The notes under the pieces: model-generated
Told to the model about the DNA's origin: nothing
Databases searched by the model: none
What the model saw: the letters and a program-made list of their open reading frames with translations, nothing else
Source of the DNA: an uncultured Bacteroidales bacterium
GTDB lineage: Bacteria; Bacteroidota; Bacteroidia; Bacteroidales; F082
DNA: 64,000 bases
Assembly: GCA_900318085.1 (NCBI GenBank)
Contig: ONJF01000005.1
Coordinates: 20,730-84,729, forward strand
Direction: 5' to 3'
In this document: positions 1 to 9,231 of the stretch, one piece after another
Position numbering within the stretch: position 1 is the stretch's first letter
Layout: each line of letters opens with the position of its first letter
Made by a program: the position numbers and the translations under genes

Positions 1-660
1 AACAAATTTGTACCTTGTGCAAATTTCAATGTTGTTCCTGGTAATAGTGTCAGACGGCATTTTGCATCCCTTTTACCAATGACCACATTACCTAATATGT
101 AATAAGTATGACAATTCCATATTCGATCATCTGCCATCGTCCCTCCTGCAATTGCCACTCCATCAACAAGGTTGCCCGAAAAACTCGCATCCAATACACC
201 CACATAATGAATATTATTGTAATACATAGCATAATTACCGTTATCCTCAATTTGCACATTATGCAATTCAATCAAACTATTGTCTGAATAGATGCCAAAC
301 TCTCCATTGTCGTTCACTTGGCAGTTGTTCATGATGGTTCCACTGCTGCCAAAATATATTCCATCGCCACCATTGTTCAAGAATTGGCAATTGGTAAGGT
401 TAGTCGTAGAAGAGCTAAAGTTCGCTCCACGATTCACAGCCTCTTGGAAAATGCAATTTTCTATTTGATTTGGTTGATTTGTATTACTTACATGAAGGTT
501 GTAATCATTGCCTTTTTCAACGATACAATACTTTAGCACGGATTCCATGCCTTCAATATTGTCACTTAAATCATTAAACATAACACCATTCCAACCACCA
601 ATTTCATCGTTCATGGCAGTGAAAACAATTGGGGTTTCTTCCGTTCCAATCGCATTCAAT
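1..660 (-). pseudogene. Out-of-frame 3' continuation of the beta-helix surface protein gene
   Basis: Reading the minus strand from about 660 down to base 1, one frame stays open and encodes another copy of the roughly 210-residue module found in the neighbouring gene: GGWNG near the start, then CIVEKGN, a TNQPNQ segment, N/G-rich beta-helix rungs, and the closing motif RLTLLPGTT. The frame is shifted against the upstream gene, whose stop (TGA) falls right after its own PGTT motif, and about 20 residues expected between PGTT and LNAIGT are missing. No start codon of its own is apparent. It is best read as the continuation of one large gene interrupted by a small deletion or a mis-assembly. It runs off the window, so any C-terminal sorting domain is not visible. 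Confidence 0.7.
29..109. repeat. 81-bp direct repeat, copy A (inside beta-helix module)
   Basis: Positions 29-109 match 661-741 at 80 of 81 bases (t at 100 versus c at 732), offset 632 bp. Both encode the conserved segment around ILGNVVIGKRDAKCRLTLL, although the surrounding modules are strongly diverged. The offset is not a multiple of three, in agreement with the frameshift between the copies. Confidence 0.85.
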
Positions 661-3541
661 ATGTTGTTCCTGGTAATAGTGTCAGACGGCATTTTGCATC
701 CCTTTTACCAATGACCACATTACCTAATATGCAATAAGTATTAGATGCCCATACTCTATCTTCAGAAACCGTTCCTCCAGGCAAACAATAATTACAATTG
801 TTGTTTTGGAAAACAACATTATCATTGTTATTCACATTCATGTTAGGCGTAGCATAACGGATGCCCACACTTGAGTCTTTCAGGGTGCAGCTATAGTAGG
901 TGGCCTCATACCCCGTGTTGTTGTAATAGATGGCATATTGCGAAAGGTTTTCGAAGGTGTCCGAAATCAAGGTGGGTTGCGAGGTTTGGCTCCAGAGGCC
1001 GATGGGCGCATCCTTCAATGTGCTTTCCTCGAGGTTGATGCTGGCATTGTCGAGTTGAATGTTTTGGTTTACGGCATCCTGGAACGTGCAGTGCATAACG
1101 CTGGGTTGGTTGGTGCTGCCGCAATACATATTGGTGTTGCCTTTCTCAACAATGCAATAGCGCAACGAGGATGAACTATTATAGTCAGAGCCGTCGCGGA
1201 ATTGCAGGCCGTTCCAACCGCCCACTTCACCATTATAGGAAGTGAAAGTGATAGGTGCTGTCGCAGTTCCAACGGCATACAGCATGCCGCCTTGGTTGTT
1301 GTTTCCACCCACATACAAAGCATAGTTTTCTTTACCCTTTATCATGGTGCCAGCACCAATGGTGAGTTTGGGTGTACCGCCATATACCTCAACGTTGCCA
1401 AGCAAGACATAGCCGTTGGCATAATAGTTCCAAGTTTGATCAACGCTGATTCGTCCACCAGCCACAGCGATATCAGTGTCGTTGTCGCCAAACGAGACAT
1501 TGTCAGGCTCGAAAATGAAAGAGCGGTCGGGCGAGCAGGAATAAATACCATATAGATTGCCTGAAAGAGTCACGGCTTGGAAGGCCGTATTGAAGTTGGT
1601 GGTGGCATAATAAATGCCTGCATAGCCGTTGTTGGTGATGGAGCACCCGTTGCAGGTAGGCACGGAATTGTTGATATAAATGCCGCTTTCGGCATTGTCG
1701 TCCACTTCAATATTCATGAAGGTCGGGTTGGCGTTTTGCAACCTTATGCCATGGCCATCGGCATGGCTGAACGAGCAGTTGGAGATGGCAGGCGTGTTGG
1801 TATAATAAAGGTAAAGGTTGGCGTTGTATTCATCGCCCTGGCCGCCATATTCGATGTTGGTATAGCTCATCACCGAGGCCACACTGCTATCGCTTGAATC
1901 TTGGAAATGCACGCCTTTCCAGAAGTTGCCTGCACCACCGTTGGAAGTCAACAGGATGGGACTGGCTTGGGTGCCGTTGAAGAATACGGATGCCTGCCCA
2001 ATAATCATACCCGTGTTGGGCATAAACTGGATGACCACGCCCGCCTCTATTTGGTGCACACCAGAAGTGAAGCTGATGTCATTGGTAACGAGATAAGGGC
2101 TACCCGCCAATGAAATGGAGAAGTTGTCGTTGAGGTTTCCGGCCAACTGGGTGAATCCCGTCAAAGTGAGGGTGACATCGGCAAGAGAGAGGTTGTCAGA
2201 GCCCGTAGCATTGAAGCGGAACATATATTGGATGTAACTGTAGCTTTGGTTGATGATGACAGGGAGATTGCTGCCGGCAGAAATCCAGCTGCCAAACACT
2301 TTGTCAGGACCTGCCATACGGTAAAGGATCTCATAGGAAGAGGTCGATGAAACATAAGTGAGGCTATAGCTCAACTGCTGTAAGTTTTTGGGCATACCCA
2401 CATCGAATGGCAAGCTGACGAAAGTAGACTTGTTCACTACCGTAGCACTAGTATTGACGGGCATATAACGAACAGAATTATTCAAGGCCTCCGAAATGGA
2501 TTGTCCACCGCAATAGAAAATCTTATTGCCAAAGGCGAAAGCGGCGCCTTGGGTATAGCGCTCGGGCAAGGTGATGTCAGCAGCAGTCCAAGTATAGGGT
2601 GTGGATGAGAAATCAGTAATGAAGCAGTTGTTGGTGGGTAATGAGTTGTCGTGTCCTCCAATGAGGGCAAGAATACCATTGGTACAAACTGCACTGTGGT
2701 CATAAACGGGTGCGGGAAGCGAAGACTGCATTTGCCAGTTGGCCAGGCTTCCATTCAAGTTGACTGTGGCTTCATACACAGTGCTTTGCACGGTATGAGA
2801 TGCATCATAACCACCTGTGACGATGATCTTTGAATCATAAGTAGCAACGGCATGGCCATTACGAGCCGCAGGCAGATTGTTCATCTCAGCAATGGAACCA
2901 ATCTCGCCCCAAGCATTGACTTTCAAGCAATACACTTTATTGGAAACACTGTTGACGTCATCAACGGGAGCACCTCCTATTAAATAGATATTGCCCATTG
3001 CCATGATAGCACGACCACCCCAGCAGGGTTGTGGAAGCGTGATATCCATTGTTTCCCAAGTACCGATGTTGCCATCAGCATTGATTTTAGCCGAATAAAT
3101 TTTATCACTGACGCCTTCGCTATTACGACCACCCATAACATAGAGATGGGTTTGCGTAGCAATGACAGCCATGTCTTTCAAAGTGACCGGCAAGGCATTT
3201 AACGTTGTCCACCCAGAGATGCCGTTCGTTTGTTGTGTGGCACGATAAACAGTGTTGACCTCATTAGTTCCATTAAAGCCGCCAACGAGATAAACAAATT
3301 CATGCCAAGTAACCAACTGATGGTTTTTGAGATTCTGAGGTAAGTTGGTAGTAGCATTCCAGTCGCTCAGCGACTGCATCTTTCCTTGCAAGGAAATGCA
3401 ATCGTCGGCAATGTTAACATTCAATCCTGTGCCTTGCATGAAGTCACTGGTAGTGGTTTGGGTGAAATTCACCTGCGCAAATGCCACATTAATGCCAAGA
3501 AGCATCATCAATGGCAACAATCGTAAAGCTTTCATTTTCAT
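656..3541 (-). CDS. Exported Kelch-repeat / right-handed beta-helix surface protein (frame broken at its 3' end)
   Basis: The 961-residue product begins with a clear signal peptide (cleaved after AFAQ). Residues about 40-370 contain repeated Kelch-like blades with motifs such as YLVGG, YVMGG, YLIGG, IVTGG and FYCGG, which form a beta-propeller in known families. A linker domain follows, then parallel beta-helix rungs from about residue 480 onward (IYINNS, GIYY and ISNCSF patterns), organised as long modules ending in PGTT or GAGT. Such proteins usually sit on the cell surface and bind or process glycans or adhere. No catalytic residues are identifiable. The stop is premature: the next module continues in another frame downstream. 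It is probably monocistronic. Confidence 0.75.
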   Translation of the reverse strand: MKMKALRLLPLMMLLGINVAFAQVNFTQTTTSDFMQGTGLNVNIADDCISLQGKMQSLSDWNATTNLPQNLKNHQLVTWHEFVYLVGGFNGTNEVNTVYRATQQTNGISGWTTLNALPVTLKDMAVIATQTHLYVMGGRNSEGVSDKIYSAKINADGNIGTWETMDITLPQPCWGGRAIMAMGNIYLIGGAPVDDVNSVSNKVYCLKVNAWGEIGSIAEMNNLPAARNGHAVATYDSKIIVTGGYDASHTVQSTVYEATVNLNGSLANWQMQSSLPAPVYDHSAVCTNGILALIGGHDNSLPTNNCFITDFSSTPYTWTAADITLPERYTQGAAFAFGNKIFYCGGQSISEALNNSVRYMPVNTSATVVNKSTFVSLPFDVGMPKNLQQLSYSLTYVSSTSSYEILYRMAGPDKVFGSWISAGSNLPVIINQSYSYIQYMFRFNATGSDNLSLADVTLTLTGFTQLAGNLNDNFSISLAGSPYLVTNDISFTSGVHQIEAGVVIQFMPNTGMIIGQASVFFNGTQASPILLTSNGGAGNFWKGVHFQDSSDSSVASVMSYTNIEYGGQGDEYNANLYLYYTNTPAISNCSFSHADGHGIRLQNANPTFMNIEVDDNAESGIYINNSVPTCNGCSITNNGYAGIYYATTNFNTAFQAVTLSGNLYGIYSCSPDRSFIFEPDNVSFGDNDTDIAVAGGRISVDQTWNYYANGYVLLGNVEVYGGTPKLTIGAGTMIKGKENYALYVGGNNNQGGMLYAVGTATAPITFTSYNGEVGGWNGLQFRDGSDYNSSSSLRYCIVEKGNTNMYCGSTNQPSVMHCTFQDAVNQNIQLDNASINLEESTLKDAPIGLWSQTSQPTLISDTFENLSQYAIYYNNTGYEATYYSCTLKDSSVGIRYATPNMNVNNNDNVVFQNNNCNYCLPGGTVSEDRVWASNTYCILGNVVIGKRDAKCRLTLLPGTTY
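661..741. repeat. 81-bp direct repeat, copy B (edge coincides with frame break)
   Basis: Second copy of the 81-bp repeat. Its low-coordinate edge at 661 is the point at which the beta-helix reading frame breaks. This suggests either a recombination deletion starting in the repeat or an assembly join across it. Confidence 0.85.
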
Positions 3542-3610: not shown

Positions 3611-3883
3611 TTAAGGTTTGTCCTCAGTCAAAGTCTGGGATTTCTGTTTTTGGTTTTTAAGATGTTTAGAACACGCCTCGAAAAAATCGTGGTCCAAGGC
3701 CAAACTGATTTCGAAAAGCAGGTGCATGGTGACCCATTGCTGTCTGCACACCTTATAGATGTTCTCGGGAGTGCAGTGCACATGCTTGGCCAGCCATGTG
3801 GCTGAACGTCCTTGGCGTACCAGTTCGGCCTTGATGAGCCTACCCATGTGGAAACCATTGTCTGTGTCCGTTTTCTTGCCCAT
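3611..3883 (-). CDS. Small helix-turn-helix protein (tandem paralogue 1)
   Basis: A 90-residue protein with an XRE/Cro-like helix-turn-helix core: HMGRLIKAELVRQGRSATWL, then HCTPENIYKV as the likely recognition region, followed by LLFEISLALDHDFFEAC. It has no transmembrane segment or signal peptide, and the C-terminus is charged. It is paralogous to the product of 3968-4240, sharing HCTPENIYK and the DFFE/DFFA motif, with an 84-bp gap between the genes. Proteins of this type are common in Bacteroidales as small single-domain DNA-binding proteins of unknown target. No toxin partner is visible. The function is inferred from the fold only. Confidence 0.7.
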   Translation of the reverse strand: MGKKTDTDNGFHMGRLIKAELVRQGRSATWLAKHVHCTPENIYKVCRQQWVTMHLLFEISLALDHDFFEACSKHLKNQKQKSQTLTEDKP

Positions 3884-3967: not shown

Positions 3968-4240
3968 TTATCGGTTTTCTGTTACTTTTTGTTTGATTGT
4001 CTCCGCTTTTAGGTGTTCGGAACAAACCGCGAAAAAGTCGAAATCCATGACCCGACAAATCTTGAAAAGCATGGGCATACCGACCCATTGCTGCTCGAAA
4101 ATCTTATAGATGTTCTCGGGAGTGCAATGCACCTGCCCGGCAAGCCACGGGGCGTTCCTCCCCTGTCGCGCCAACTCGTCCTTAATCTTTTTACCGATAT
4201 GGAATTCCTCGTTATTGAGGCTTTCTCTCTTGTCCGTCAT
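3968..4240 (-). CDS. Small helix-turn-helix protein (tandem paralogue 2)
   Basis: A 90-residue protein of the same family as the preceding one: FHIGKKIKDELARQGRNAPW, then HCTPENIYKIFEQQW, then DFDFFAVCSEHL. The two products align end to end without large gaps, so the pair arose by tandem duplication. The ATG at 4240 lies 3 bp from an 18-bp near-palindrome (4244-4261), which suggests self-regulation. The gene is 75 bp downstream of the caspase operon on the same strand and could be read through from it, although no terminator or separate promoter is clear. Confidence 0.72.
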   Translation of the reverse strand: MTDKRESLNNEEFHIGKKIKDELARQGRNAPWLAGQVHCTPENIYKIFEQQWVGMPMLFKICRVMDFDFFAVCSEHLKAETIKQKVTENR

Positions 4241-4315: not shown

Positions 4316-5788
4316 TCAGCGTCTCTCCACATCGCGCACCAAGCGCACCGAGAGACCCCAGTTGCGGAATACCGTAATCGCTCCCAAGTCATTATGGTCA
4401 AAACTAAAAGCCTTGGCCCTCCTGACATTGTTTTCCGAGGTGTAATACATGCCCTGAGATCCGGCATATTCTACTCTATCCTCGTCACGATACCCGCCCG
4501 CAGGCAAAAACACAGCGCCATTGAAAAACAGGAGCGTTTCCCAACCGTCGTTGATGACATTGCTGGTGAAACTCGCATTGGCTTGGTTGACGTTATTCAA
4601 ATAATACGCCGAACTGCTCCAAGTGTCAGGGAGTATGATGAGACCATTGACGCCATACACCTGCGCCTTGGCAAAGCGGATGCCCGAAGGGGTGCTGCGC
4701 TCGTTGAGCACATATTCCCATTCACTGCGTGTCGGTGTGCGCCATTTCCCTTCCTCGCCTTCACCGAAGAGGTCGTTGTAGCCCCAGTCGGCCTGACCCG
4801 TATTGTCATACAGTTGGGCTTCTTCGTCGCCGTAAGCAAAATAATGGTCGGCATTGCCATCCATGCTCCAAGGCTGGTATGCCACCGCCCCGTGGTTGTA
4901 GCCACTCGTGCCCCAACCGAAAAGGTCGATCCATCCGTCATAGTCTTCTGCGATATTGGCATTGTCCATGCCTATGTAGTCGAAAGCATTCTCGGCAAAG
5001 CCCCACAGATGCTCTGAAGCCAGATACTGTAAATTACTCACCGAAAACCACACTTGATGTCCCTCGCCGACTGTAAACAGTCCATTGGTTGCACCCAAGG
5101 GGGGATCCAAATGATCCATGGTGGTGAAACTCAACTCCTCGCCATAATTAATGCCTTTTCGGTTTTTGGCGTATGCCCTCACATAATAGGTAGTGTTAGG
5201 CCTCAAGTCAACCATACTGATGGAATAATCGCCGAGGCCTTGTCCATGGGCGTAAACGAAATCTGATATATCAGGTTGCTGGCTTGTGCTCCAACACGCA
5301 CCACGCTCGGTCACCTCGGCGCCACCGTCGTCAGACACATGACAAAGGCATGATGCTGTCGAAACCGTCACGCCCGTCACCTCAACGGTGGCAACAGTGG
5401 GCAGGTTGATTTCTTCCTCTGCCGTAGTGAAACCATAGAGTTCGCTCTGCCAATCGGTCTGCGCCCCATAGTCCACCAGATAGGCGTAATAATAGAAGGT
5501 GCCCGGCTGCAAACCGTGTATTTCAACTGAATAAGTCTTTCCCATCACCGTCATGCCATAGTCCTCGGAGCCATAGAGATGTTCCTCAGTGCCAACCCTC
5601 AGCCTCATACTATCGATGACTCCAGGGTAGGCATATTCGCCTTTGAAGATGGCCCAATCGGTACCCACCGTGATCTTCTCCTTTTCTTTAAGAATCTGAA
5701 TGGTTTCTTCATTGGGCTTTGGGTCTTTATGACACGCCCCTAATGTCATGGCGCATAACGCGACAAGAATCAAATGTTTAAAACGCAT
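4316..5788 (-). CDS. Lipoprotein with two FN3-like domains and a FISUMP/C-type-lectin-like C-terminus
   Basis: A 490-residue protein with a lipoprotein signal (lipobox LGAC, acylated Cys19). Residues about 35-125 and 130-225 are two fibronectin-III-like beta-sandwiches, each with a YYYAY or YYVRAYAKN strand and ending in FTT. The C-terminal ~250 residues match the Fibrobacter-succinogenes-major-paralogue type domain: ending in GLSVRLVRDV, with WRTPTRSEWEYVL and LPAGGYRDED, related to the SUMF1/C-type lectin fold. It is probably an outer-membrane surface protein for binding. It is the last gene of the sigma/caspase operon, and its start overlaps the end of the preceding barrel gene by 11 bp. 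Confidence 0.72.
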   Translation of the reverse strand: MRFKHLILVALCAMTLGACHKDPKPNEETIQILKEKEKITVGTDWAIFKGEYAYPGVIDSMRLRVGTEEHLYGSEDYGMTVMGKTYSVEIHGLQPGTFYYYAYLVDYGAQTDWQSELYGFTTAEEEINLPTVATVEVTGVTVSTASCLCHVSDDGGAEVTERGACWSTSQQPDISDFVYAHGQGLGDYSISMVDLRPNTTYYVRAYAKNRKGINYGEELSFTTMDHLDPPLGATNGLFTVGEGHQVWFSVSNLQYLASEHLWGFAENAFDYIGMDNANIAEDYDGWIDLFGWGTSGYNHGAVAYQPWSMDGNADHYFAYGDEEAQLYDNTGQADWGYNDLFGEGEEGKWRTPTRSEWEYVLNERSTPSGIRFAKAQVYGVNGLIILPDTWSSSAYYLNNVNQANASFTSNVINDGWETLLFFNGAVFLPAGGYRDEDRVEYAGSQGMYYTSENNVRRAKAFSFDHNDLGAITVFRNWGLSVRLVRDVERR

Positions 5789-6599
5789 ATCCTAATCCTA
5801 TTTTTAGTTCAACATCATGAAATTGTGTGGTGACGGCCTCCAACGACGTTACAAAACCCTTCCAATGCAGCTGCACACCTGCCGAGAGGTCGATGCCTTG
5901 CAGGCTATATGCGGTGTTACGGTACCACTCTCCATCAGTGGTCTGCCAGCACACCGTATGGTTGCCATAACCCACTCCCACACGGGCGATCCATGGCCCA
6001 TAGATGCGCATCATACCTCCTGCCATAAGGGAGAGACGCGTTTTCGCGACCTCCCCGGTATATTGCATCAGATGGCCGTCGGGCAAAAAGCCTTGTGCGT
6101 CACAGTAGCCATCGGCATGAAAGCCCGAGAAGCCGCCGTTGCTCATCAGGCTCACAAACCATCCGAAATGTTTCACCTGTCCCACACTGACGCCCACAGA
6201 GCCTTGGGGCGCAAAGCTATAGGCGGCATTAACCGTGACGAAGGTCTCAAGTGGCCAACGCTCTTTCTGGCGAATACTCAACTTGAAACGAACTTGGTCG
6301 TTAGCGAAGGCGTCGACATCGAGTTCTTTGAGCACATCCCATACGAGACGATGGCCAAATCCCGCCTTGACATCAACGACATCGCCACTGACCTGTTGCA
6401 AGGGGCCACGATAGGTGACGCCCCCGTCCAACGACACGAAGAGTCGCACGAAATCGGCATCGACACCAAGGTCATATTCCACGACGATGCTTTTGTCGTG
6501 TGGATAGGCCTTTACAATGCCAGCGACCTCTTGGGCCAGTAATGGCTGCATTAAACTGCAAGTCAAACATGCCATCAATATCCAAATCTTTTTCATCAT
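5778..6599 (-). CDS. Small outer-membrane barrel-type protein with N-terminal Ig-like domain
   Basis: A 273-residue protein with a signal peptide (cleaved near LLAQ). Residues about 25-110 form a beta-sandwich with the pattern VSLDGGVTY, then VSGDV, GFGHRLVWDVL and VRFKLSI, a module often seen in Bacteroidales envelope proteins. The remainder alternates hydrophobic and polar residues, is rich in aromatic and Gly residues, and ends in LKIGLGYAF, a C-terminal Phe typical of outer-membrane barrels. It starts 6 bp after the caspase gene and overlaps the following lipoprotein gene, so all three are probably co-translated. No specific function is known to me. Confidence 0.6.
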   Translation of the reverse strand: MMKKIWILMACLTCSLMQPLLAQEVAGIVKAYPHDKSIVVEYDLGVDADFVRLFVSLDGGVTYRGPLQQVSGDVVDVKAGFGHRLVWDVLKELDVDAFANDQVRFKLSIRQKERWPLETFVTVNAAYSFAPQGSVGVSVGQVKHFGWFVSLMSNGGFSGFHADGYCDAQGFLPDGHLMQYTGEVAKTRLSLMAGGMMRIYGPWIARVGVGYGNHTVCWQTTDGEWYRNTAYSLQGIDLSAGVQLHWKGFVTSLEAVTTQFHDVELKIGLGYAF

Positions 6600-6605
6600 G
6601 CCACC

Positions 6606-7847
6606 TTATTTAATCTTTAACGATCTCCAACCCGACATGACACCATGTGCCGTAGGATGTTGGGCTTTCGTTCCTTCTACGGCCGACATGCGCGAAATAC
6701 TCTCGTTAAGGTAGTCGGCCAACTCACCAGCGGTGACATCGCCACGGGTCTCTTTCAATTTCTTCAACAGGAAATATGTGAACAAGCCATGCGACTTCTC
6801 GTGGTAGGCATAGGCTGTCTCGTTGCCTTGAGCAGCTGAAAAAGCTATAGCGTTGCCCTGCAGTTCACCTGCTTTTGAATTGACAGCAACGCCACGACTC
6901 TCGGCCAGCATCTCTCCTTCACGAGTGGCACCGCTGAAGCAGGCATCCACGAAATACATCATCCTATCGGCGCCGGCTAAACCCAATTGGGCATACAAGG
7001 CATCCAACCCAAATCCAGACTCCATATTGGAGCCATATCCGTCAACGGGCAAGAGATAGGCGCAACGACTCGTCTCGTCGGGCATGCCATGACCCGAATA
7101 GTAGAATATGCCTTGGGCTTCACCCCGATAGGCTTCCAAAGTGGCTTTCAACCAGTCGATTTCAAAACGCATATTGTTCAATGTGGCATCCGTAACAAAA
7201 TGGACATTCTTCTCTGGGATGCCTAACAGTTGCGTGCAATACTCCTTGAAGACCTCGCCATCGTGGATGGCAAAGGGAACATGCTGTTCTTGTTGGTAGT
7301 CTTCGTTGGCGATGATGACGACATAGGTCTTGTCGTTCACCACATCAGCCTGCGGAATGTCGATGTCAACATCGGATGGCGTGACTCCCATGTGGTATCG
7401 GCTGATGTTGAAACTGAAAACTGGCGATTCCACCTCATAGAGACGTGTGCCGTCGAGCCATAGCATCTCTTCAGGCGACAGTCCGCTCAATTCATAATAG
7501 CGCATCCGAGCTTCTTTGACCTTGTCTTTGGGTGCCATGACCACGCGAAGCGTATCGGCCGTAGTTAGCGTCCATTGGCGCGTCACATGAACATTCACAA
7601 CCTCATAACCTTGTTTTCTCGCTTCGATGCCACAAATCACATCGCCGACTTGATGCTTCGCAAAGCAAAGGCGGAAACAGCCCTTTGCATCGCTCATTGT
7701 AGGCTGACAATCGTGTTCAGAAGGTATGGTAAACGTGACTCCCGAAAGAAGTGCACCATTATCATACAGATCCACCTTGCCATATTGCACCGTCTGGCCA
7801 AGAAGTGTAGTGCTAAACATCACGAATACAATCCAAAGGTATCTCAT
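6606..7847 (-). CDS. Exported caspase-family (C14/metacaspase-like) cysteine protease
   Basis: The 413-residue product starts at the ATG that overlaps the upstream stop (ATGA). An upstream in-frame TTG start would place codons before the signal peptide, so I reject it. AAAAGGAGG lies just ahead of the chosen ATG, an unusually good ribosome site here. Residues 1-18 are a signal peptide. Residues 20-105 resemble a carboxypeptidase-regulatory/PEGA-type beta domain. Residues 172-410 are the caspase domain: strand TYVVIIANEDY, catalytic His253 in YYSGHGMP, and catalytic Cys303 in VDACFSG, with both dyad residues intact. Caspase-like proteases cleave proteins after a specific residue, acidic in animal caspases and basic in metacaspases; the specificity cannot be read here. 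The enzyme would act in the periplasm, encoded downstream of a sigma/anti-sigma pair. Confidence 0.85.
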   Translation of the reverse strand: MRYLWIVFVMFSTTLLGQTVQYGKVDLYDNGALLSGVTFTIPSEHDCQPTMSDAKGCFRLCFAKHQVGDVICGIEARKQGYEVVNVHVTRQWTLTTADTLRVVMAPKDKVKEARMRYYELSGLSPEEMLWLDGTRLYEVESPVFSFNISRYHMGVTPSDVDIDIPQADVVNDKTYVVIIANEDYQQEQHVPFAIHDGEVFKEYCTQLLGIPEKNVHFVTDATLNNMRFEIDWLKATLEAYRGEAQGIFYYSGHGMPDETSRCAYLLPVDGYGSNMESGFGLDALYAQLGLAGADRMMYFVDACFSGATREGEMLAESRGVAVNSKAGELQGNAIAFSAAQGNETAYAYHEKSHGLFTYFLLKKLKETRGDVTAGELADYLNESISRMSAVEGTKAQHPTAHGVMSGWRSLKIK

Positions 7848-8620
7848 GGCTGCACCTCCTTTTCCAAGCTGATCAGCCAAGGCTCCGTAGCCGATGGTCT
7901 GTATAGTTCATCCCACGACTGGTAACCTTCTTTGGCAACCAGCACGCGTTGGGTGACGTCTTGTTTGTCAAAAGGAATCTCGATTCTGAATTGTCCCATG
8001 GCATCAGTGACAGCCTGATACTCGAGCAAGCGCACCATGGCGCCTTCGACAGGTTGACCATTCTCGAAGTCGCACACCCGGCCAAACACCACACCAAGGT
8101 CGTTGTTGCGTCTGACGCAAAGCTCAACGCTCCGTTGAGCCTTCACCACCGTGTCGATGGTTTGATAGCCTTCTGCTTCGAACACGAGATGCACCGGGCT
8201 GCCTTTCAAATGATAAGGGATGTCATTAAGAAACACCGTGGCGTTGTCGGGACTCACCGTGATACGTTGCAAGGCGTTGCCAGCATATTCGCATTCGAGG
8301 ATGCCACCTTCAAAAGGAAGGGCAGGTATGGCAAAAGCTTTATCCTCGGTGATGTTGACTTTCATCTGTAAAGGAGTCAACAAACGCCAAATCAGTAGTG
8401 CCAGAAAGCCCACTAGCAACAATGCCAACACACCATAGACAAGGAAACGCCGTTTGGAGCGCTTGTAGCTCAATTCATAACGTGCCAACATGACAGCATC
8501 CAAAGCCTCGTCATGTTCAGACAGATACTGTTCCACGGCAGCTTTCTCGTTTGCTGTCAGTTTTCCTTCCAGATAACAGGCCAACAGCTCGTCCGTTATT
8601 TCCATCTTATCGTTTCTCAT
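7844..8620 (-). CDS. One-pass membrane anti-sigma-like protein with periplasmic beta domains
   Basis: The 258-residue product is taken from the ATG that overlaps the sigma-factor stop (ATGA); a longer reading would add 26 residues inside the sigma gene. Residues 1-55 are a cytoplasmic helical segment with ELLACYLEGKLTANEKAAVE, the pattern of Bacteroidota anti-sigma N-termini. Residues about 59-80 are a single transmembrane helix. The periplasmic part holds a PEGA-like stretch (LVFEAEGYQTI) and a carboxypeptidase-regulatory-like domain (GRVCDFENGQPVEGAMVRLL, AKEGYQSW). Its stop overlaps the caspase start by 4 bp. The expected role is to hold the sigma factor at the membrane until an envelope signal arrives. 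Confidence 0.75.
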   Translation of the reverse strand: MRNDKMEITDELLACYLEGKLTANEKAAVEQYLSEHDEALDAVMLARYELSYKRSKRRFLVYGVLALLLVGFLALLIWRLLTPLQMKVNITEDKAFAIPALPFEGGILECEYAGNALQRITVSPDNATVFLNDIPYHLKGSPVHLVFEAEGYQTIDTVVKAQRSVELCVRRNNDLGVVFGRVCDFENGQPVEGAMVRLLEYQAVTDAMGQFRIEIPFDKQDVTQRVLVAKEGYQSWDELYRPSATEPWLISLEKEVQP

Positions 8621-9201
8621 TGGTCTTTCCCTTTCATCATCTTTTTCAAAGCCTTTCTGGCTTTTTTGGTCAGGTTGTAGACCGCCGTGACCGTGCAACC
8701 CATTTCCACAGCTATGGTCTCGGCACTCTTCCCCGTGAGTTCACCGAGCAGAGCAAGACGTTCCCTAGGCTTGCCCAGTCGGTCGATGGCTTCATATAGC
8801 TCAATCCTTGACATTTCATGAAAGATGTCATAGTCATCAATCTCATTGTCAACTTTGTTAATTATTAGAGGGTCAAGAGCTACGGTTTGGTCTTTCATGC
8901 ATGTCTTTTTCTCCTTGAAAAACCGAATAGCGACAATGGTTAGCCAAGTGTTTAGACTCGAACGGAACTCAAACTGGCGTAGCCTTTTCCAATCGTCTTT
9001 TCTAAGATGCAGGTAAAACTCATTAATCAGCTCATCTTTTCCACCTTGTGGCGGATAGACACTGTTGACGATATGTTCAAACATACCGTCACAGCGGTGG
9101 AAGAATAAATACTCCACAGCTTCTTCATCGTTGGCGAGCAGCATGTCCACCAACTGTTGGTCCGACATACTATCGAATTTATGCCACCGCTTTTTCGTCA
9201 T
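8617..9201 (-). CDS. ECF-type RNA polymerase sigma factor
   Basis: A 194-residue protein with sigma region 2 at about 15-100 (LINEFYLHLRKDDWKRLRQF, then FRSSLNTWLTIVAIRFF) and region 4 helix-turn-helix at about 140-190 (LGELTGKSAETIAVEMGC, then VYNLTKKARKALKKM). Regions 1 and 3 are absent, as in ECF sigma factors. It is the first gene of a coupled operon with an anti-sigma protein, a caspase-like protease, a barrel protein and a lipoprotein. A TAATTTTG -7 box lies just upstream. By family habit it probably transcribes its own operon, but I cannot show an autoregulatory promoter. Confidence 0.88.
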   Translation of the reverse strand: MTKKRWHKFDSMSDQQLVDMLLANDEEAVEYLFFHRCDGMFEHIVNSVYPPQGGKDELINEFYLHLRKDDWKRLRQFEFRSSLNTWLTIVAIRFFKEKKTCMKDQTVALDPLIINKVDNEIDDYDIFHEMSRIELYEAIDRLGKPRERLALLGELTGKSAETIAVEMGCTVTAVYNLTKKARKALKKMMKGKDQ

Positions 9202-9223
9202 CCAAGAAACGTATTTCAGGGCG

Positions 9224-9231
9224 CAAAATTA
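9224..9231 (-). promoter_or_regulatory. -7 box of the sigma/caspase operon
   Basis: Minus-strand TAATTTTGC matches the Bacteroidota housekeeping -7 box TAnnTTTG and lies 22 bp ahead of the sigma-factor start, giving a leader of about 15 nt. It suggests basal transcription by the primary sigma factor. Confidence 0.55.

What the first reader, a model, noticed from the sequence alone, without database searches (positions are those of the whole stretch)
4316..9231. ECF sigma factor, membrane anti-sigma and an exported caspase-like protease in one coupled operon with two surface proteins
Seen: sigma, anti-sigma and caspase genes are joined by ATGA stop/start overlaps, and the last two genes follow with a 6-bp gap and an 11-bp overlap, so all five form one translation unit. 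The anti-sigma protein has one membrane helix and beta domains outside, the protease has a signal peptide and an intact His/Cys dyad, and the tail genes encode a barrel and a surface lipoprotein. Known: ECF/anti-sigma pairs release the sigma factor after cleavage or conformational change in the anti-sigma. Inference: the protease may cleave an envelope protein, possibly the anti-sigma itself, and link an outside signal to transcription or to a lethal or defence response.
Basis: partly seen in the sequence, partly recalled or inferred. Interest (0 to 1): 0.78.

Follow-up and report, generated by a model that had tools for sequence, protein, structure and literature searches.

The report
Caspase fused into membrane sigma-factor receptor
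In an uncultured gut Bacteroidales bacterium, a caspase-like protease exported from the cell is fused to a domain that elsewhere accompanies membrane signal receptors, and its gene sits in one operon with such a receptor and the transcription factor it probably restrains; if confirmed, this would link protein cutting outside the cell to gene control inside it.

Summary
In detail: five genes (ECF sigma, membrane anti-sigma, exported caspase, putative barrel, lipoprotein) form one tight run. It recurs in 9 of 99 genomes of the genus (own included). The caspase clade has one origin in the tree made; 12 of its 13 members lie in a sigma/anti-sigma run. The wider caspase family mostly lacks the pair (75 of 79 named loci), so capture in this genus is likely.

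The larger result lies beyond the finding. The caspase's N-terminal domain (CASN) is present in all 25 intact sigma/anti-sigma loci opened, the caspase in 12. The anti-sigma ectodomain also occurs with TIR or other cytoplasmic domains in Bacteroidales, mostly beside secreted CASN proteins. Nine anti-sigma proteins carry a C39-like peptidase domain.

Best reading: a modular membrane receptor with exchangeable outputs, read by a secreted CASN partner that here carries a caspase. Cleavage of the anti-sigma is possible, unproven and not needed for the core, which exists without a caspase. Within the nine operons, ectodomain and CASN do not covary more than other parts. The conserved promoter-like element is of housekeeping type. 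No structure could be predicted.

The parts
9224..9231 (-). TAATTTTG, match to the Bacteroides housekeeping -7 element TAnnTTTG, 22 bases before the sigma start codon
   Evidence: TAnnTTTG within 80 bases upstream of the position aligned with this start codon in 8 of 9 operons of this type, 22-25 bases before it in 7 of 9; chance in a single shuffled upstream region 0.017-0.17. Consensus from PMC7366714 (one passage)
8617..9201 (-). ECF-type sigma factor, 194 aa
   Evidence: Sigma70_r4_2 4e-6; TIGR02937 34.8 bits, under its cut-off of 42.9
7844..8620 (-). membrane anti-sigma, 258 aa
8471..8596 (-). cytoplasmic anti-sigma-like helices (residues 9-50), without a CxxC zinc motif
   Evidence: (zf-HC2 E 0.094, under cut-off); function inferred
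8384..8449 (-). transmembrane helix of the anti-sigma (about residues 58-79), basic residues on its N-terminal side
   Evidence: Kyte-Doolittle maximum 2.87 at residue 59
7847..8377 (-). ectodomain 'ECTO': PEGA-like part (by eye) plus CarboxypepD_reg-like domain; shared with TIR membrane proteins
   Evidence: (hhalign 97.7, 177 columns)
6606..7847 (-). exported caspase-family peptidase, 413 aa, with signal peptide judged by eye
7464..7796 (-). 'CASN' domain (residues 18-128), usual companion of ECTO proteins
6648..7325 (-). Peptidase_C14 domain (residues 175-400): His253 7089-7091, Asp301 6945-6947, Cys303 6939-6941
   Evidence: invariant in 15 of 15
5778..6599 (-). secreted protein: N-terminal BARN domain and putative outer-membrane barrel
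   Evidence: (no Pfam hit); barrel inferred from sequence
4316..5788 (-). lipoprotein (lipobox Cys19, by eye) with fn3-like part and a C-terminal domain ('LIPC') with six further matches in this genome
3968..4240 (-). small HTH-like protein downstream; relatives lie after other operons of this type; membership in the operon unknown
   Evidence: Pfam weak only
3611..3883 (-). second small HTH-like protein, same family

Best explanation
A modular envelope-to-cytoplasm signalling operon. A membrane protein with a fixed ectodomain (ECTO) carries an exchangeable cytoplasmic output, here an anti-sigma domain that holds the ECF sigma factor. A secreted partner with a CASN domain docks on ECTO and sets its state. 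In this lineage the usual TPR-like tail of the partner has been replaced, by one fusion, with an exported caspase taken from an envelope caspase module whose barrel and lipoprotein came along. The caspase is thus delivered to the anti-sigma ectodomain. A surface signal, perhaps through the barrel and lipoprotein, would change the CASN-ECTO complex and the caspase's activity and so release sigma. Shown: gene order, conservation, fusion, domain sharing, invariant catalytic residues, one origin in the tree made. Inferred: direction of the fusion, CASN-ECTO contact, sigma binding, caspase activity and target, signal. If the caspase cleaves inside the complex, basic P1 residues are expected (Asp301 in the S1 pocket; recalled from metacaspases).
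For: CASN lies in 25 of 25 intact sigma/anti-sigma loci of the genus: fused to the caspase in 9, adjacent on a protein with a TPR-like helical tail in 16. Outside the genus, 8 of 11 opened ECTO loci have CASN neighbours, with cytoplasmic parts of several kinds, whereas the same CASN model hits 0 of 75 named caspase loci without the anti-sigma (a second model, CASNtir, hits one of them, L131, at 7e-4). Profile matches: anti-sigma to TIR protein 97.7 over TM plus ectodomain, CASN to CASN-like 97.8. Fused caspases form one clade (100/96) inside a clade of caspases from sigma/anti-sigma loci (99/95) in a tree of 35. ATGA coupling is conserved. G000 and G095 share a block from the anti-sigma gene to the lipoprotein at about 85% DNA identity against 58-74% over sigma (third positions agree in part).
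Against: No structure or complex could be modelled. The breakpoint between G000 and G095 is not resolved. CASN was not found in 3 of 11 outside ECTO loci (one a 3.6-kb contig). In the TIR loci L113-L115 only the model built from those loci finds the CASN-like domain; the link rests on the profile comparison and on L061 and L058, where the CASN model itself hits. CASN and the C-terminal ECTO domain match each other only weakly (hhalign 27.8). The outside set was chosen by similarity to this anti-sigma, with at most six candidates scored per genome: 16 of 393 order genomes and 2 of 395 phylum genomes match at E 1e-6, our own counted in both.
Confidence: 0.5

Rival explanations
1. Regulated proteolysis: the caspase itself cuts the anti-sigma ectodomain (site-1-like) and later proteases free the sigma factor, a periplasmic counterpart of Csx29/Csx30 or DegS/RseA.
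For: Fusion of the peptidase to the usual companion of the ectodomain, conserved translational overlap, invariant catalytic residues; precedent of a caspase-like peptidase cutting a sigma inhibitor (PMC10028731, passages).
Against: The same sigma/anti-sigma/CASN core occurs without a match to this caspase domain at E 0.001: G085, G090 and G025 (96-98% complete), and G086, G012, G030, G113, G028 (58-85% complete). The G010 operon has none where its relatives have one, though that genome has a distant relative elsewhere (29% identity). Arg79 next to the membrane is conserved in two homologues whose loci show no caspase (rows L044 and L046) and is Cys in the caspase-bearing G105 operon (row L100), so it is no signature of a cut.
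Confidence: 0.3
2. The caspase is an envelope protein processor (for example of the barrel and lipoprotein) that is merely co-transcribed with a sigma factor; its ancestral role is unrelated to sigma release.
For: In Bacteroidales at large the family lies with other secreted proteins and without the sigma pair: LPP211 or P282 in 39 of 75 such named loci; BARN in 13 and FGE-like proteins in 3 of all 79. In G010 the P282 frame runs on into the barrel part where the caspase is missing.
Against: Does not explain why CASN, the usual companion of ECTO proteins, is fused to the caspase in all nine operons.
Confidence: 0.3
3. A danger or defence circuit: the caspase executes killing or growth arrest after an outside attack, like cytoplasmic conflict systems with caspases and TIR domains.
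For: The same ectodomain carries TIR domains in sister systems; caspases and ECF factors co-occur in the EACC2 systems (PMC8195603 section 9); lipoprotein number and repeat length vary between loci.
Against: The caspase is exported; PADLOC finds only one weak caspase match among the five proteins; the further genes beside it in the window look housekeeping by eye (only three or four of them were scanned); no phage or toxicity test was possible.
Confidence: 0.15

Closest known systems
[quoted passage not shown]
   Same: caspase gene beside ECF sigma and TPR protein genes; variable companion domains
   Different: there the caspase is constant and fused to EACC2 with a variable C-terminus; here it is exported, C-terminal to CASN, with a membrane anti-sigma beside it; EACC1-caspase model under cut-off (54.3 of 140 bits)
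Craspase / CASP (Csx29 TPR-CHAT, Csx30, CASP-sigma; PMC10028731, passages read)
   Same: caspase-like peptidase, sigma inhibitor and ECF sigma factor encoded together
   Different: RNA-guided with Cas7-11, and cytoplasmic as I understand it; here membrane and periplasmic, with no TPR hit on the caspase
Metacaspase operons with sigma-70 genes in Myxococcus and others (PMC3501461, section 13 read)
   Same: metacaspase and sigma factor in one predicted operon
   Different: other phyla; no exported caspase with a membrane anti-sigma and CASN domain is described in the section read
ECF / membrane anti-sigma pairs released by proteolysis such as RpoE/RseA (recalled; mentioned in PMC10028731 passages)
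   Same: sigma then single-span anti-sigma, coupled genes
   Different: a caspase instead of DegS-type proteases; ectodomain shared with TIR proteins; anti-sigma relatives with a C39-like insert

Membership tests
ECF sigma factor | region 4 domain over curated cut-off | tested here: met
   Sigma70_r4_2 26.8 against 25.7 bits
ECF sigma factor | full-length sigma-70 ECF model over cut-off | tested here: not met
   TIGR02937 34.8 against 42.9 bits; matches residues 34-189, so a divergent member is likely. An ECF model built here included this protein and is no independent test
Membrane anti-sigma of class I type | anti-sigma/zinc-finger-like domain over cut-off | tested here: inconclusive
   zf-HC2 E 0.094, under cut-off
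Membrane anti-sigma of class I type | one transmembrane helix and gene directly after sigma | tested here: met
Membrane anti-sigma of class I type | binds and inhibits its sigma factor | not testable with these tools
   needs experiment; complex modelling unavailable
Peptidase family C14 (caspase / metacaspase) | Peptidase_C14 domain over cut-off | tested here: met
   62.1 against 21.4 bits
Peptidase family C14 (caspase / metacaspase) | catalytic His and Cys | tested here: met
   His253 and Cys303 invariant in 15 of 15
Peptidase family C14 (caspase / metacaspase) | proteolytic activity | not testable with these tools
   needs experiment
EACC1/EACC2-caspase systems | EACC1-associated caspase model over cut-off | tested here: not met
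   54.3 against 140 bits
EACC1/EACC2-caspase systems | EACC2 domain and DUF1822 TPR protein | tested here: inconclusive
   no DUF1822 among the nine window proteins scanned; no EACC2 model tried
Craspase (type III-E CRISPR) | TPR-CHAT protease with CRISPR effector | tested here: inconclusive
   no TPR on the caspase; CRISPR arrays and effector genes were not searched for

The most novel reading that the evidence does not exclude
A previously undescribed family of Bacteroidales membrane receptors with one ectodomain and interchangeable cytoplasmic outputs (anti-sigma, anti-sigma with a built-in C39-like peptidase, TIR, and an unnamed domain), each read by a secreted CASN partner that can itself be a caspase: a bacterial circuit in which a caspase outside the inner membrane switches transcription, and sister receptors use TIR domains instead.
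Probability: 0.35. Interest if true: 0.85.

Novelty: new variant of a known kind. Interest (0 to 1): 0.62.

Why it matters
One scan found at least 540 stretches encoding relatives of this caspase, and I know of no substrate or input for them. Here the gene fusion suggests a physical partner, the ectodomain of an anti-sigma, which makes both questions testable with four proteins. If the receptor reading holds, ECF transcriptional output and TIR effector output share one sensing front end in gut bacteria, and the anti-sigma proteins with a C39-like insert (nine seen) would place a second, cytoplasmic protease on the same switch.

Tried and rejected
Considered and set aside. (2) Chance adjacency: rejected, since order, overlaps and phylogeny are conserved. 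(3) Mobile origin: the caspase has only matches under 60% identity, none covering 80% of it, in 13 plasmid records, and the anti-sigma none in phages; GC of the operon (50.3%) equals the window (49.7%), the sigma gene alone being lower (44.8%). (4) Sigma autoregulation: the promoter-like element seen repeatedly is the housekeeping TAnnTTTG; I saw no ECF-type promoter but ran no search for one, so autoregulation is not excluded. (5) CASN as a duplicate of the anti-sigma's own C-terminal domain: weak, inconclusive. (6) A breakpoint exactly at the membrane helix between G000 and G095: suggested by DNA windows, not held up by third positions. (7) Solved-structure relatives by sequence: none at E 0.001 for the caspase alignment or 0.1 for the anti-sigma. 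(8) Prior description: paper searches listed no paper that I recognised as describing this arrangement; subscription papers are mostly not held.

Counting choices. The 25 sigma/anti-sigma loci leave out G014, whose anti-sigma pieces have internal stops or lie at contig ends, and one short anti-sigma-like frame in G027 (C133, 122 aa) that I did not open. Of 30 distant caspase places in the genus (51% identity or less) I looked at the neighbourhoods of 11, none with this sigma factor by a single-sequence search at E 0.001, which could miss unrelated ECF factors. Of 16 order-level hits two are in our own genus; I fetched one locus each from 12 of the other 14, and G314 among them has only the N-terminal part, so 11 had ECTO. 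Of 30 weak matches in the genus with frames of 377-438 aa I opened four, all TIR proteins with ECTO (L061, L113-L115); a fifth TIR locus, L058, came in through CASN and its TIR gene is cut by the contig start. All five have CASN-like neighbours. The second NCBIfam scan named none of the partner proteins over cut-off, the C39-bearing anti-sigma of L104 included.
Full report
OBSERVATION. The five genes are present as described. Sigma (194 aa), anti-sigma (258 aa), caspase (413 aa), barrel-like protein (273 aa) and lipoprotein (490 aa) run from 9201 to 4316 on the minus strand, with two ATGA overlaps, a 6-base gap and an 11-base overlap. Pfam identifies Sigma70_r4_2 and Peptidase_C14 over cut-off, CarboxypepD_reg just under it on the anti-sigma, and Pur_ac_phosph_N (over) and fn3 (under) on the lipoprotein; the barrel has no hit. 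The anti-sigma has one strongly hydrophobic segment. This is the only Peptidase_C14 match in the genome at E 0.001 and one of 14 Sigma70_r4_2 matches, ten over cut-off.

CONSERVATION. A search of 99 genomes of the genus, own included, with the anti-sigma gave 46 with any match. The strong matches form 25 intact loci, all of which I opened. Nine, in nine genomes, have the window's layout: sigma, anti-sigma, CASN fused to caspase, barrel, lipoprotein (type A1; in G007 the contig ends inside the barrel gene). The sigma/anti-sigma overlap is ATGA in 9 of 9 and the anti-sigma/caspase overlap in 8 of 9, with a 1-base overlap in G114. Protein identities between operons are 51-75% for sigma and 65-90% for the caspase domain, so the layout has outlasted much sequence change.

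THE CASPASE WAS PROBABLY CAPTURED ONCE. In the genus, 29 of 99 genomes encode a relative of the caspase domain, 43 places in all. Thirteen places share 58% identity or more; 12 of these lie in the same gene run as sigma and anti-sigma. The thirteenth, in G031, starts 2.7 kb from a contig end, while that genome's sigma/anti-sigma run ends in lipoprotein repeats at another contig end, so a single locus is likely but not shown (L034, L047). The remaining 30 places have 51% identity or less (48% or less apart from one fragment in G032); I opened 11 and saw no relative of this sigma factor. Among the 79 best-scoring named caspase loci, mostly Bacteroidales by their titles, the clear pair occurs in four, which are contigs of three genomes of the genus; the other 75 lack it. 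Two of these have partial hits: L172 a weak ectodomain match (6e-4, no anti-sigma helices) and an ECF gene on the other strand, L183 an ECF fragment at its edge. In a tree of 35 caspase domains (13 of these, two from other fetched genomes and 20 of the named ones) the 13 form one clade (99/95) and the nine fused ones one clade within it (100/96), with the separate G089 caspase as sister (96/88). In the ectodomain tree type A1 is one group with less support (86/89; 80% of bootstrap trees).

WHAT THE CASPASE NORMALLY ACCOMPANIES. In 39 of the 75 other loci it lies near one or both of two secreted families that I call LPP211 and P282; the members scanned have no Pfam or NCBIfam match over cut-off. 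A transglutaminase-like protein (TGL; so named from its Cys/His/Asp pattern by eye, no Pfam hit over cut-off) is in 12 of 79 and BARN domains in 13 of 79. Three sigma/anti-sigma loci (G082 second copy, G066, G089) hold both sets, in the order CASN, sigma, anti-sigma, LPP211, P282, separate caspase, barrel, lipoprotein, with extra genes in G082 and G066. The window's layout is what remains if CASN is fused straight to that caspase and LPP211 and P282 are lost; the tree fits this direction.

CASN AND THE ECTODOMAIN OCCUR TOGETHER. All 25 loci have a CASN domain: fused to the caspase in nine, on an adjacent protein with a TPR-like helical tail in sixteen. Caspases are in 12 of the 25. Of 30 weak matches with frames of 377-438 aa I opened four; all are membrane proteins with a TIR domain inside (Pfam TIR_2 1.6e-10 for the one scanned) and the anti-sigma's membrane helix and ectodomain (hhalign 97.7 over 177 columns; own ectodomain model 1e-8 to 9e-13). 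These four and a fifth TIR locus (L058) carry secreted proteins with a CASN-like domain, mostly followed by TPRs (CASN against CASN-like 97.8). In L061 and L058 the CASN model itself hits; in L113-L115 only the model made from these loci does. In 393 genomes of the order, 16 match the anti-sigma profile at E 1e-6. Of 11 opened loci with the ectodomain outside the genus, 8 have CASN neighbours by the CASN model (3e-13 to 2e-43); the cytoplasmic part is anti-sigma plus C39-like in two, TIR in four, an unnamed domain with KKIRIFLASSAELD or close to it near its start in four (it resembles DUF4062 as I recall it; Pfam gave no such match) and undefined in one. By contrast the CASN model hits 0 of 75 named caspase loci without the anti-sigma; the CASNtir model hits one, L131, at 7e-4. 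In the phylum at large the profile matched 2 of 395 genomes, one of them our own. Against special pairing: across the nine operons, pairwise identity of the ectodomain correlates with sigma (0.71) more than with CASN (0.44) or caspase (0.24).

C39-LIKE INSERT. Seven anti-sigma proteins of the genus carry a Peptidase_C39-like domain between the anti-sigma helices and the membrane helix (PF13529 and PF03412 over cut-off for the one scanned; no NCBIfam hit for another); Cys85, His175 and Asp196 are invariant in 7 of 7. Two more come from other genera by a model built from the seven. Activity is unknown.

PROMOTER. TAnnTTTG lies within 80 bases of the position aligned with the window's start codon in 8 of 9 A1 operons, 22-25 bases before it in seven (45 and 64 in G087). 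The frame's own start differs by 3 bases in G007 and G105 and by 42 in G114, where the upstream alignment shows the element further out. It is absent before sigma in 11 of 11 type-B (A2 included) and 5 of 5 type-C loci, and present within 150 bases before TGL in 7 of 9 type-B loci. TAnnTTTG is the housekeeping -7 consensus (PMC7366714, one passage). Single-sequence chance is 2-17%, so the weight lies in repetition and position.

MECHANISM. Shown: conserved operon, fusion, catalytic residues, joint occurrence of CASN and ectodomain, exchange of cytoplasmic outputs. Inferred: CASN binds the ectodomain and so brings the caspase to the anti-sigma; sigma is held by the anti-sigma; one capture and one fusion. 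Against an obligatory protease role: eight genomes with the core have no match to this caspase domain at E 0.001, three of them 96-98% complete (G085, G090, G025), and in G010 the P282 frame runs into the barrel part where caspase and BARN would be, with the rest of the operon present (an assembly error is not excluded). I therefore prefer a receptor with a docked, regulated partner, with proteolysis of the anti-sigma as the leading special case. No structure could be predicted.

PRIOR WORK. Caspase or CHAT peptidases beside ECF or sigma-70 genes are known: Myxococcus and other operons (PMC3501461, section 13), EACC2-caspase/ECF/TPR systems (PMC8195603, section 9), and the CRISPR peptidase Csx29 that cuts the sigma inhibitor Csx30 (PMC10028731, passages). 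None of the text read describes an exported caspase joined to a membrane anti-sigma's companion domain. I file it as a new variant of a known kind.

Noticed in passing
L047:3459-4910, L048, L103-L107 (alignment A4); L234:852-2411; L235:6174-7724: Anti-sigma proteins with a Peptidase_C39-like domain between anti-sigma helices and membrane helix; Cys, His and Asp invariant in 7 of 7 aligned.
   Followed up: partly
L113:6228-7358, L114:6472-7605, L115:6009-7136, L061:9869-10999, L241-L244: TIR membrane proteins with the anti-sigma ectodomain; 7 of these 8 loci have CASN or CASN-like neighbours (not L242).
   Followed up: partly
L236:6829-7929, L237:7808-8896, L238:5089-6222, L240:6854-8038: Membrane proteins with the same ectodomain and another cytoplasmic domain (FLASSAELD near the start; no Pfam name for it), beside one to four CASN-domain proteins.
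   Followed up: partly
L045:4001-6100 (G010): Operon without the caspase: LPP211 is followed by a P282 frame that continues into the barrel part; caspase and BARN are missing.
   Followed up: partly
window 3611-3883 and 3968-4240, minus: Two small HTH-like genes after the operon; relatives follow several other operons of this type and lie near L049 and L050; five matches in this genome (one with a stop).
   Followed up: partly
L035, L036, L037, L101, L105, L107 and named loci: LPP211 and P282, two secreted families without names in Pfam or NCBIfam, recur beside Bacteroidales caspases (both in 28 of 79 named loci).
   Followed up: partly
L034 and L047 (G031): Several tandem lipoprotein genes with variable numbers of fn3-like repeats beside the caspase and barrel; two contig ends fall in these repeats.
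   Followed up: no
window 656-3541, minus: 961-aa secreted protein with kelch repeats and a right-handed beta helix (Pfam).
   Followed up: no
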